Source of the DNA: Gemmatimonadota bacterium
Lineage (GTDB): Bacteria; Gemmatimonadota; Gemmatimonadetes; Gemmatimonadales; Gemmatimonadaceae
NCBI GenBank assembly: GCA_016194585.1
Contig: JACQBG010000018.1
Span: 1 to 54,919 of the forward strand
Reading direction: 5' to 3'
Length of the DNA stretch: 54,919 bases
Part shown: positions 35,356 to 39,832 of the stretch, piece by piece
Layout of the letters: the number at the start of each line of letters is the position of its first letter
How positions within the stretch are numbered: the stretch's first letter is position 1
The notes under the pieces: model-generated
Told to the model about the DNA's origin: nothing
The model's database searches: none
Seen by the model: the letters and a program-made list of their open reading frames with translations, nothing else
Translations under genes and position numbers: made by a program

Positions 35356-36171
35356 GTGCGCATCGACCGCATTCCTCCCGTGAGCCGCGATCTGATCCCC
35401 TCCCGCACGCCGCGTTCGCTCCAGCACGAGTACTCCATGTACGTCGATCGTGAGATCGAGGCGTACAAGGAATCCGTGTCGCGTGCGCATCTGTGCGGGA
35501 TCGCCGACGTGGCGCACGCGACGCTCGAGGGGGAATTGCAGCTCGGCATGCGCGACGTGCTGCTCGCCGCGGAGGTCGATCGGATCATCGCGCGCCGGCT
35601 CAAGATCCCCTCGTTCGAGACGTGGCGCCGCCGCCTGCTCCGCAACGCGTCGGAACCGAAGCGCCCCGAGTATTGGGGGCTGCGCGCCGACACGCCGCTC
35701 GCGCACGCGCTCAACCGCGCGTCGCTGAGCGCCGAGGTCGTCGTGACGGGGGCGCGTGTGCAGGGTTCGGCGCTGTACCTGGCCGCGAACGGCTGCCATG
35801 TGACGGCGATCGAGCCGGAACACGACGTGGTGGAGCGCGTGCTCGTCGCCGCCGAGGAGGCGGGACTCGAGTCGCGCGTGCGCGGACTGACGACGGAGTT
35901 GAGCCAATGGATGCCCGACGGTCCGGTGGCCGCGGTGGTGCTCACGCCGGCGGCGTTCGCGGGGCTCGGACCGTCGGAGCGCGAGCGCGTGATCGCCGCG
36001 CTCCAACTGGCGACGCTCGACGGCGGCGTGCACCTCGTGGAGACGATCATCGCCGGCCAGGAGGCGATCACGGAGGATGAGCTCCGGCAGAGCTACGCCG
36101 GGTGGGACCTCTCGTTCGTGCAGGAGCCCGGTGCCGCGAAGACACTGGTCGCGAGGAAGTCCGTCGCGTAA
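35356..36171 (+). CDS. Predicted SAM-dependent methyltransferase-like protein
   Basis: 271 residues, not assigned to a known named family. Residues ~125-200 look like a Rossmann methyltransferase core (VVTGARVQGSALYLAANGCH, AIEPEHDVVERVLVAAE) with Glu where SAM-binding acidic residues sit; the usual GxGxG is replaced by GARVQGSAL. The N-terminal third is helical. The GTG at 35356 was used; a GTG at 35380 is also possible. It stands alone and is followed by two hairpins. Confidence 0.7.
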   Translation: MRIDRIPPVSRDLIPSRTPRSLQHEYSMYVDREIEAYKESVSRAHLCGIADVAHATLEGELQLGMRDVLLAAEVDRIIARRLKIPSFETWRRRLLRNASEPKRPEYWGLRADTPLAHALNRASLSAEVVVTGARVQGSALYLAANGCHVTAIEPEHDVVERVLVAAEEAGLESRVRGLTTELSQWMPDGPVAAVVLTPAAFAGLGPSERERVIAALQLATLDGGVHLVETIIAGQEAITEDELRQSYAGWDLSFVQEPGAAKTLVARKSVA

Positions 36172-36537: not shown

Positions 36538-36616
36538 ACGGGACGTCGGCCGAAGGGAGAGCGCGCTCCGGGGGTGATCCTCCGGGGCGCACGTGTTTTC
36601 GAGGGTGGTTAAAACG

Positions 36617-36652
36617 ACAGCGGGGAGCCGACGATCGTCGGCTCCCCGCTGT
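36617..36652 (-). terminator. Strong terminator of the 21-residue gene
   Basis: A perfect 36-bp palindrome: ACAGCGGGGAGCCGACGA and its reverse complement, followed on the minus strand by CGTTTTAA. It starts 8 bp after the microprotein stop. Also may end transcripts of the 52-residue gene from the other side. Confidence 0.85.
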
Positions 36653-36660
36653 TCGAAGAA

Positions 36661-36726
36661 CTACTTCTTCTTCGCGGCCTTCTTCTTGGTGGCCTTCTTC
36701 TTCGCAGCCTTTTTCTTGGCAGCCAT
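36661..36726 (-). CDS. Lysine-triplet microprotein, 21 residues
   Basis: ATG at 36724-36726, TAG at 36661-36663. The product is four KKK triplets separated by AA or AT pairs (MAAKKKAAKKKATKKK...). AGGAG lies eight bases before the ATG, and a 36-bp palindromic terminator lies 8 bp after the stop, so it is a complete gene. Composition matches histone H1-like C-terminal repeats, so a DNA- or RNA-binding/compacting role is likely. The strong signals suggest high expression. Not in any named family that I can assign. Confidence 0.75.
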   Translation of the reverse strand: MAAKKKAAKKKATKKKAAKKK

Positions 36727-36812
36727 GGTACTAGCTCCTGTGAAGGAGTGAATTCCCTGGCGATCCCCCGGTGGACCGCTGGGCTCGAAACCGCGTTTCC
36801 GCGGCCCCGCTC

Positions 36813-38204
36813 TTACACGGCCTCGGAGAGGCTCGTGAAGTTGAAGTCCCGCACCTTGATCGACGGCATCGCGATCGCGCCGCCTTGCTCGGTGCCGGCG
36901 AGCCGCTCGGACCGTCCGAGCGCCTCGAGATTATTCAGCATGAAGAGCGGCGATTCGTTGAATCGCATGTTCGATACGCTCTTCGAGACCCTTCCGTTTT
37001 CAATCAAGAACGTGCCATCGCGCGTCAATCCTGTGTACAGAATTGTACGAGGATCGACTTCGCGCAAGTACCAGAGCCTGGTGACGAGGATCCCGCGTTC
37101 GGTCCCGCGGATGAGTTCGTCGACCGTTTGCGAGCCTCCGGACATCTTGAACGAGCTCGGTGCGCCCGTCGCGACCTTGTTCTGTTTCTTCGCCCAGAAG
37201 CGCGAATAGTACAGCTGCTTGAGCACGCCGTTCTCGATCCAGAGCTGTTTTCCCAGAGGGAAACCTTCGCCATCGAAGGGTTGCGCGAGCAGCTGCGGAT
37301 CGGCGGGATCGGAGAACATCGTCACCCGCTCATCGACGATCTTCTCCCCGATCTTGTTTCCGCCGCCGGTCTTCACGAAGGGCGAGCGTCCCTCGTCGGA
37401 GCTCCTGGCATCGGCGTAATTCGAGACGAGCTGGACGAGGTCTCCCGTCGCTTGCGGCTCCAGCACGACGACGTAGCGGCCCGGCTCGATCTTCGCCGGA
37501 TTCCGCGACGCGCGCGCTCTTTCGAGCGCTCGCGCGGCGACGGCGTCGAAGTCGATGCGCGACCAATCGGGATGATCGGCGGCGGCCCACCCCGATCCGG
37601 TGCCGTCGCTCGTGCGCACCGTGAGCTGGTAGTTCGCGCTCGTCGAGCGGAAGTACGCGAACATCCCCTTCTGGTTGGCGATGGCGTTGTAGCCGGCGCC
37701 GGCGACGAGGAAACCGGCGGCGACGAGGTCGCCGGCCTTGCGCGCCGGTCCGAGCGCCGAGAGCGCGACCTTGGCGCGGTCGGCCGCGGAGTTGTTGGCC
37801 GTCGCGTCGAACCACGCATCGACCGTCTCGTACCGTTGCGCGTCGAGCTCGGGCATCGCCTCGGGATCGTCGGGGGCGAGCCTGGCGAGCCGCTCCGACT
37901 CGCGCACGCAGCGCAGGAGCGAGTCGTCGGAGAGGTCGTTGGTGGTGACGACCGCGTGCTTGGGGCCGAACGACGACTGCACGACGACGGTGGCGTCGAC
38001 GATGGAGCCGGCGGTGGAGAGCTGGTTCGCGGCGAAGCGGATGTTCTGCGTGATGCCGCCGCTGACGTTCACGTTGATGGCGTCGGCTTTCGACAGCTTC
38101 ACCGTCTTCTCGCAGAGCGCCTGCACGGCGGCGCGCGGCAGCACGCCCTCGGGTTCGGCGGTCACGCGGGCGACCGCGTCGAGGAGTCGTTTGGGGGCGG
38201 TCAT
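36813..38204 (-). CDS. TldE/PmbA-like metallopeptidase partner
   Basis: 463 residues of the TldD/PmbA family. TldE lacks the HExxxH zinc site and supports TldD in proteolysis of modified peptides. Family landmarks are SKADAINVNVSGGITQNIRF, the central GYNAIANQKGMFAYFRSTSA and the C-terminal GTERGILVTRLWYLREVDPR, with NPxxG-like ends. No signal peptide. The start (ATG at 38202-38204) overlaps the TldD stop by one base (TGATG), so both are translated together. Confidence 0.88.
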   Translation of the reverse strand: MTAPKRLLDAVARVTAEPEGVLPRAAVQALCEKTVKLSKADAINVNVSGGITQNIRFAANQLSTAGSIVDATVVVQSSFGPKHAVVTTNDLSDDSLLRCVRESERLARLAPDDPEAMPELDAQRYETVDAWFDATANNSAADRAKVALSALGPARKAGDLVAAGFLVAGAGYNAIANQKGMFAYFRSTSANYQLTVRTSDGTGSGWAAADHPDWSRIDFDAVAARALERARASRNPAKIEPGRYVVVLEPQATGDLVQLVSNYADARSSDEGRSPFVKTGGGNKIGEKIVDERVTMFSDPADPQLLAQPFDGEGFPLGKQLWIENGVLKQLYYSRFWAKKQNKVATGAPSSFKMSGGSQTVDELIRGTERGILVTRLWYLREVDPRTILYTGLTRDGTFLIENGRVSKSVSNMRFNESPLFMLNNLEALGRSERLAGTEQGGAIAMPSIKVRDFNFTSLSEAV

Positions 38205-39832
38205 CAGCTCTTCCTCCCCGTGTTGATGACGTTGACGTTGCGGAAGCGGGCCGGGACGGCGCCGTGACTGACGGCGTTCACTTGGCCGGGCTGTCCCTTG
38301 CCGTCGAAGAACGAGCCGCCGAGCTGGTAGCTCTTCGGCCCGCCGATCATGTCCATCGAGTTCCAGAAGTCGGGGGTGCGGATCTGGTAGGCGACGTCCT
38401 TGAGCATGCCGGCGATCTTGCCGCCCTTGATCTCGTAGAACACCTGCCCGCCGAACTGCGCGTTGTAGCGCTGCTGGTCGATGGAGAACGAGCCATCGCC
38501 GATGATCGCGATGCCGCGGTCGGTGGCGGCGATGAGGTCGTCCCAGGAGCGTTCCTCCTTGCCCGGGAGGAGCGAGACGTTGGGCATGCGCTGGAACGAG
38601 ACGCTCGACCAGCTGTCGGCGTAGGCGCAGCCGTGGGAGCGCACGGGGCGTCCCTCCTTCTCGTACCACCACTTGAGCCAGAGTGCCTGTTCGCGCGTCG
38701 TCTCGTAGTCGTTGACGACGCCGTCCTTGATGATGAGGAAGTCGTCGGGCTGAACGCCGTCGTCGTCGTAGCCGATGGTCGAGAGCGCGCCTTCCTGCGA
38801 GCGGTCGCCGCGGATGTTCATGATCGGCGGGCCGTAGCGGAGCTTGCCGAGCTTCTCCTCGGGGGGCGCGACGAAGCTCGTGCCGGCGTAGTTGGCTTCG
38901 TAGCCGAGCGCGCGGTCGAGTTCGAGCGGGTGGCCGATGGACTCGTGGATGGTGAGCCAGCTGTTCGACGGGTGGAGCACGAGGTCGTAGCGGCCGACGT
39001 CGACGGGCTTGGCGGTGAGCTTCTGCGCGGCCTCTTCGCCCCATTTGCGGGCGTTGCCGGCGAGGTCGCAGCCGAGGACGTACTCCCAGCCGCGCCCCAT
39101 CGGCGCGGCTTCGACCCCCTGCCGGTTCTGGAAGTCGGAGAAGTCGCTCGACACGGCGGTGGCGGTGAAGAGCGGCCAGCTGCGCACGAGCGTCTGCGTG
39201 ATGACGGAACCGTCGGTGTTGGCGTAGTTCCGCTCCTGCTTCACGAGGAAGAGGATGGAGTTCACGTACTTCACCTTGTCGACCTTCATCGCCTCGGCGT
39301 TGGCGGCGAGCAGGAGGTCGACCTTCTGCTCGACGGGCACGTCGAAGGGATCGACGGTGAAGGCGCTCTTCCACGTGGCGTTGGGATGCGCCGGCGCGGG
39401 CGCGAGCTCGACGGCGCGGTCGCGGGCCGCACGGTTGGCGCGGGCGATGCTCGCGGCTTCCCGGGCGGCGGCGGTGACGGCGTCCTTCGTGAGGTTGCGC
39501 GTGGCGGCGAAGCCCCAGCAGCCGTCGAGGAGGACGCGGACGCCGCAGCCGATGGTGTCGGTGTCGACGACGTTGATGATCTGGTGCTCGCGCGTGACGA
39601 CGAAGTTCTGCCGGAAGCGCGCGATGCGCGCGTCGGCCCACGACGCGCCGGCGAGCTTGGCGGCGTTGAGGGCGTCCATCATCAATTCCTTCGCGGTACC
39701 GCCCTCGAAGCGTTCGACGTTCTCCGGCGTCGGGGCCGGCGCCGCGCGGGCGCCGCGGGGGAGGGCCGCGAGCATCGCGGCGGCGGCGCCGGCGCTGCCG
39801 GCGTACTTGAGGAACTCACGCCTGTCTGTCAT
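38204..39832 (-). CDS. TldD-like metalloprotease with Tat signal
   Basis: 542 residues. The Tat motif TDRREFLKYAGSAGAAAAML at the N-terminus predicts export, unlike the cytosolic E. coli TldD. The metal site is HESIGHPLELD (HExxxH), followed by the typical GTSFVAPPEEKLGKLRYG and the GGSFFDGKGQPGQVN ending. It forms a complex with TldE to digest peptides. The ATG at 39830-39832 places the Tat motif at the N-terminus. The start is followed by a 160-bp leader. Confidence 0.9.
   Translation of the reverse strand: MTDRREFLKYAGSAGAAAAMLAALPRGARAAPAPTPENVERFEGGTAKELMMDALNAAKLAGASWADARIARFRQNFVVTREHQIINVVDTDTIGCGVRVLLDGCWGFAATRNLTKDAVTAAAREAASIARANRAARDRAVELAPAPAHPNATWKSAFTVDPFDVPVEQKVDLLLAANAEAMKVDKVKYVNSILFLVKQERNYANTDGSVITQTLVRSWPLFTATAVSSDFSDFQNRQGVEAAPMGRGWEYVLGCDLAGNARKWGEEAAQKLTAKPVDVGRYDLVLHPSNSWLTIHESIGHPLELDRALGYEANYAGTSFVAPPEEKLGKLRYGPPIMNIRGDRSQEGALSTIGYDDDGVQPDDFLIIKDGVVNDYETTREQALWLKWWYEKEGRPVRSHGCAYADSWSSVSFQRMPNVSLLPGKEERSWDDLIAATDRGIAIIGDGSFSIDQQRYNAQFGGQVFYEIKGGKIAGMLKDVAYQIRTPDFWNSMDMIGGPKSYQLGGSFFDGKGQPGQVNAVSHGAVPARFRNVNVINTGRKS

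What the first reader, a model, noticed from the sequence alone, without database searches (positions are those of the whole stretch)
36661..36726. 21-residue lysine-triplet microprotein with complete gene signals
Four KKK blocks spaced by Ala-rich pairs, a clear AGGAG ribosome site and an exact 36-bp palindromic terminator. It is far below usual annotation limits. Its composition equals histone H1-like repeats, so it may compact DNA or bind RNA or polyphosphate. It has one promoter and one terminator, typical of an abundant small protein.
Basis: partly seen in the sequence, partly recalled or inferred. Interest (0 to 1): 0.75.

Follow-up and report, generated by a model that had tools for sequence, protein, structure and literature searches.

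The report
Basic microprotein with new RNA leader
A 21-residue lysine-rich protein gene, far below normal annotation size, is real: it belongs to a family of very basic, unfolded proteins kept in nearly all bacteria of the family Gemmatimonadaceae, and its messenger RNA carries an undescribed, strictly conserved hairpin that probably controls its translation.

Summary
The microprotein is real. It is on the minus strand (ATG 36726, stop TAG 36663-36661): MAAKKKAAKKKATKKKAAKKK. AGGAG lies 8 nt upstream, and an exact 36-bp palindromic terminator follows. No sigma-70 promoter was found. The gene is conserved across the family Gemmatimonadaceae. Its relatives are 14-163 residues, almost only K/A/R/G/T/S, mostly with no acidic residue. 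Close copies differ only at synonymous third positions.

Between ATG and about 36783 lies a structured RNA leader: a 10-bp hairpin (outer stem, small asymmetric internal loop, inner stem) capped by ACCGGG (ACCGG invariant in 78 of 78 distinct sequences), then a hairpin pairing the Shine-Dalgarno. In the first hairpin 9 of 10 pairs show compensatory changes. Covariance models find it in 146 of 179 Gemmatimonadaceae genomes (33 of 35 genera), usually once. All 80 copies examined precede a protein that starts with such basic sequence. No Rfam family or library paper found describes it.

In 30 of 80 loci the gene directly follows tldD-tldE. Best explanation: a histone H1-like polycation that binds nucleic acid and/or polyphosphate, with translation controlled by the leader. 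The ligand and the protein's target are not shown.

The parts
36661..36726 (-). Microprotein CDS, MAAKKKAAKKKATKKKAAKKK, stop TAG
   Evidence: ORF; orthologues; synonymous-only changes
36735..36748 (-). Shine-Dalgarno hairpin: CTCCT (36748-36744), loop TCAC, AGGAG (36739-36735)
   Evidence: Pairs present in 87% of cells of the 80-sequence alignment, some compensatory changes
36755..36783 (-). P1 leader hairpin: CCC / A / GCGGTCC / loop ACCGGG (36772-36767) / GGATCGC / CA / GGG
   Evidence: 9 of 10 pairs with compensatory changes; loop ACCGG invariant in 78 of 78; no Rfam match
36786..36809 (-). Predicted upstream hairpin with GAAA loop
   Evidence: RNAfold of the window leader; clade-level sequence conservation; suggestive only
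36816..36837 (-). Predicted hairpin P0, CACGAGCCTC..GAGGCCGTG, inside the last codons of tldE
   Evidence: RNAfold; similar hairpins in part of the loci, 37 of 79 against 63 of 395 shuffles for any CAC..GTG hairpin of 8 bp or more; suggestive only
36611..36652 (-). Terminator: 36-bp palindrome (36652-36617) plus CGTTTT
   Evidence: Sequence; terminator-like hairpin after 69 of 80 orthologues
36813..38204 (-). tldE/pmbA-type peptidase gene, directly upstream, same strand
   Evidence: Pfam PmbA_TldD domains; adjacent in 30 of 80 loci
38204..39832 (-). tldD-type peptidase gene, upstream of tldE
   Evidence: Pfam PmbA_TldD domains

Best explanation
The locus is a small gene for a disordered polycation of the histone H1-like type. 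It is the short local form of a family-wide basic protein that most likely coats or condenses polyanions (the chromosome, RNA and/or polyphosphate). Its mRNA carries a structured leader: a hairpin with an invariant ACCGG(G) loop and an asymmetric internal loop, then a short helix that pairs the Shine-Dalgarno. The leader most likely sets translation: when the Shine-Dalgarno helix is closed little protein is made, and a factor that recognises the ACCGGG hairpin shifts that balance. Shown: coding gene, conservation, RNA covariation, terminator, one-to-one link of leader and basic protein. Inferred: polyanion binding, translational control, existence of a trans-acting factor.
For: Orthologues of 14-163 residues with K 38%, A 27%, R 9% and mostly no acidic residue; synonymous-only changes; leader covariation 0.408 against 0.132 shuffled and at most 0.116 slid, 9 of 10 P1 pairs compensated in the independent MAFFT alignment A1; loop ACCGG 78 of 78, and more G.U than A.C cells in P1, 24 to 9; leader in 146 of 179 family genomes and next to a basic N-terminus in all 80 loci read; Shine-Dalgarno helix in 87% of cells. 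Analogies: AlgP H1-like tail, DNA binding and polyphosphate granules (PMC9239181); translational control of H1-like HctA by an RNA (PMC3469542).
Against: No expression, binding or regulation data. The Shine-Dalgarno helix is weak or absent in some genera (L119, L135). Polycation composition alone does not fix a target. Loci are related, so counts are not independent.
Confidence: 0.6

Rival explanations
1. Cationic peptide processed or degraded by the neighbouring TldD/TldE protease (RiPP-like or antimicrobial precursor).
For: tldD-tldE lies directly upstream in 30 of 80 loci from many genera. TldD/E cleaves small peptides such as the microcin B17 precursor (PMC5810440, abstract seen).
Against: About 48 loci with enough upstream sequence have the same leader and protein without tldE; orthologues reach 163 residues of repeats with no leader-core layout; no modification enzyme was recognised among the few neighbours tested.
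Confidence: 0.08
2. The ORF is a lysine-attenuation leader peptide (uORF) for a downstream gene.
For: Short, lysine-rich, followed at once by a terminator.
Against: The next gene downstream is convergent, here and at the recurrent position in 55 of 80 loci; orthologues grow to 163 residues.
Confidence: 0.02
3. The transcript works as a small RNA or the hairpin only protects the mRNA 5' end, and the ORF is incidental or unregulated.
For: P1 is stable, and in genera with a recognisable promoter it lies within the 5' untranslated region.
Against: Coding signature and long orthologues; mere stability does not explain an invariant ACCGG loop.
Confidence: 0.15
4. P1 is a DNA operator (an inverted repeat bound by a transcription factor), not an RNA element.
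For: The stem is an inverted repeat in DNA as well.
Against: The repeat arms change while keeping pairing and only the loop is invariant, the reverse of an operator; it sits at a fixed short distance from the Shine-Dalgarno and downstream of the promoter seen in some genera.
Confidence: 0.05

Closest known systems
AlgP and PhaF of Pseudomonas (histone H1-like KPAA repeat proteins)
   Same: Lysine/alanine-rich, low-complexity, disordered basic tail; AlgP links DNA and polyphosphate granules. Gemmatimonas aurantiaca was described as polyphosphate-accumulating (reference title).
   Different: AlgP has a 124-residue N-terminal domain and a tail of over 150 residues; here the whole protein is tail, down to 14 residues, with a structured RNA leader.
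Chlamydial HctA (Hc1) under sRNA IhtA
   Same: Small H1-like protein whose translation is controlled by RNA.
   Different: IhtA is a separate trans-acting RNA; here a conserved cis hairpin is found and no trans RNA is known. Sequence kinship was not tested.
Structured cis-regulatory leaders (riboswitches, protein-binding hairpins)
   Same: Small hairpin with invariant loop, asymmetric internal loop and freely covarying stems near the translation start (family knowledge, not a test).
   Different: No Rfam family matches it; ligand unknown.
SWIB-domain proteins with a lysine-rich N-terminal tail
   Same: Share the MAAKKKAAKKPAKK-type start; one gene (L124) has a leader-like hairpin.
   Different: They carry a folded SWIB domain; the hairpin loop is not kept in related genomes.

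Membership tests
Histone H1-like (AlgP/Hc1-type) basic proteins | Lysine/alanine-rich low-complexity basic sequence | tested here: met
   K 38%, A 27%, R 9%; mostly no acidic residue
Histone H1-like (AlgP/Hc1-type) basic proteins | Binds DNA or polyphosphate | not testable with these tools
   Needs binding assays
AlgP family proper | N-terminal helical domain before the KPAA tail | tested here: not met
   Whole ORF is 21 residues of tail; no Pfam or NCBIfam match for the microprotein; AlgP layout
Any Rfam RNA family | Score above the gathering threshold | tested here: not met
   Window scan gave six tRNAs only; permissive scan of five leader loci gave no match over the P1 leader above threshold
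Cis-regulatory RNA leader (kind) | Conserved structure with compensatory changes upstream of one type of gene | tested here: met
Cis-regulatory RNA leader (kind) | Ligand-dependent change of expression | not testable with these tools
   Needs reporter and binding experiments
TldD/E peptide substrate | Cleavage by TldD/E | not testable with these tools
   Only adjacency in 30 of 80 loci is known
Attenuation leader peptide | Regulated same-strand gene just after the terminator | tested here: not met
   Next gene is convergent

The most novel reading that the evidence does not exclude
The ACCGGG hairpin is a new class of cis-regulatory RNA, confined to Gemmatimonadaceae and perhaps a sister family. 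It senses a conserved ligand or protein to set the amount of a major polycation of the cell, linking nucleoid or polyphosphate state to translation of a protein that can shrink to 14 residues.
Probability: 0.4. Interest if true: 0.82.

Novelty: new variant of a known kind. Interest (0 to 1): 0.65.

Why it matters
It turns a 21-residue ORF that annotation would discard into a near-universal gene of a whole bacterial family with its own structured RNA leader. Cultured strains carry it, so it is directly testable. It offers a minimal natural polycation (14-24 residues) for work on nucleoid compaction and polyphosphate, and a candidate new regulatory RNA class with one-to-one target choice.

Tried and rejected
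A genome contigs pattern scan used too long a gap (32 nt or more; the true gap is 27 nt), so it missed the real loci; its six hits are treated as chance. A first Pfam/NCBIfam scan of the SWIB protein (protein 1) used a C-terminus that I had typed wrongly; the Pfam scan was redone from DNA and the NCBIfam result for that protein should be ignored. The SWIB-gene copy of the leader (L124) was considered as a second regulon member and left open, because in a related genome the loop is not kept (TACCGGGA in L166). Weak model hits outside the family (G205, G215, G224, G236, G256; G357, G366) were rejected: those read lack the CACCGG loop with a basic ORF. The attenuation, DNA-operator and RiPP readings were weighed and ranked low. 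No structure prediction was run: the protein is below the tool's length limit and disordered. Literature searches found no description of the motif; two large bacterial ncRNA surveys do not mention Gemmatimonas in their main text.

Full report
1. Observation. The ORF lies on the minus strand, 36726-36661, and reads MAAKKKAAKKKATKKKAAKKK. AGGAG is 8 nt upstream of ATG. The 36 bp at 36652-36617 are an exact palindrome followed by CGTTTT. No sigma-70-like promoter was found near it, so the claim of one promoter is not supported; the gene may be read from the tldD-tldE operon or from an unrecognised promoter.

2. Conservation of the protein. A DNA search of 60 relatives matched the locus in nearly all other genomes of the genus. 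The proteins read there start MAAKKK and vary from 14 to 22 residues in whole codons. Two groups with identical protein sequence differ only at third codon positions: 3 and 4 variable codons, all synonymous. Across the family the same gene runs from 14 to 163 residues and is made almost only of K, A, R, G, T and S. A terminator-like hairpin follows in 69 of 80 loci against 6 of 77 control stretches.

3. The RNA leader. Nineteen sequences gave P1 = outer stem, small asymmetric internal loop (1 x 2 in the window), inner stem, ACCGGG loop. With 80 sequences (78 distinct), 14 of 15 pairs of the whole structure show changes on both sides. The covariation score is 0.408 against 0.132 in shuffles and at most 0.116 when slid (this alignment was fitted to the model, whereas the first, A1, was made by MAFFT without it). 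ACCGG is identical in 78 of 78; the sixth loop base is G in 77 and U in one when read without gaps. G.U cells exceed A.C cells 24 to 9 in P1, which favours RNA of the coding strand. A second helix pairs the Shine-Dalgarno (87% of cells). Two further upstream hairpins are predicted. One of them, P0, lies inside the last codons of tldE in the window, and the same kind of hairpin occurs in loci without tldE; this part is suggestive only.

4. Distribution. Model R1 matched 143 and model R2 146 of 179 genomes of the family (32 and 33 of 35 genera), usually once per genome. In the order and phylum samples, hits outside the family are few and weak. A sequence pattern for loop, Shine-Dalgarno and basic start matched 53 of 298 phylum genomes, with no match to the reversed control; all but one are in the family. 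The exception, G040 of sister family f3, has stem-ACTGGG-stem, a Shine-Dalgarno hairpin and MAAKKKAAKKTAKKKVAKKKK, so the architecture may be older than the family. It is a single case. No Rfam family matches the leader above threshold.

5. Which organisms. This places family f1 as Gemmatimonadaceae. It is an inference from lengths, not from labels.

6. Neighbourhood. tldE ends 25-183 nt before the model start in 30 of 80 loci, with a decayed tldE remnant in one more (L012). A convergent gene recurs downstream in 55 of 80 by ORF clustering, which is crude in such GC-rich DNA; in the window the convergent gene is 35356-36171, with no Pfam match. Genera g5 and g37, and single loci of g7 and g14, have a TTGCNN-17/18-TATATT promoter about 100-130 nt before P1, so the leader there would lie in the 5' untranslated region.

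7. Mechanism. Best reading: a disordered polycation of H1 type, with translation set by the leader. AlgP shows that such tails can bind DNA and that such a protein sits on polyphosphate granules, and HctA shows that an H1-like protein can be controlled at translation by an RNA. Gemmatimonas was first described as polyphosphate-accumulating. Because the loop is invariant while the protein changes freely, the partner of the loop is more likely a conserved protein, RNA or small molecule than the polycation itself; autoregulation remains possible. This step is inference.

8. Limits. Nothing here measures expression, binding or regulation. E-values from the session models are rough. Loci are not independent samples. 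Literature was searched only in the open library.

Noticed in passing
L024 (G040, family f3), about 1400-1570: Lysine-rich microprotein MAAKKKAAKKTAKKKVAKKKK preceded by CCGCCGGCC-ACTGGG-GGCCGGCGG and a Shine-Dalgarno hairpin: a possible leader homologue outside the family with loop ACTGGG, not reported by the covariance models.
   Followed up: partly
L124:3010-3410 (G152:C10): A leader-like hairpin precedes a SWIB-domain protein with a lysine-rich N-terminal tail; in related genomes the SWIB gene does not keep the ACCGGG loop.
   Followed up: partly
window 36816-36837: The last codons of tldE can fold into a hairpin that resembles hairpins upstream of the leader in loci without tldE; L012 keeps this piece next to a decayed tldE remnant.
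   Followed up: partly
window 35356-36171: A 271-residue convergent gene with no Pfam match lies downstream of the microprotein; a convergent gene recurs at this position in many loci of the family.
   Followed up: no
G182:C10:133692-133747 and G183:C39:87617-87672: Second places with CACCGGGGG, a Shine-Dalgarno and ATGGCCGCTAAGAAG in genus g49; not examined.
   Followed up: no
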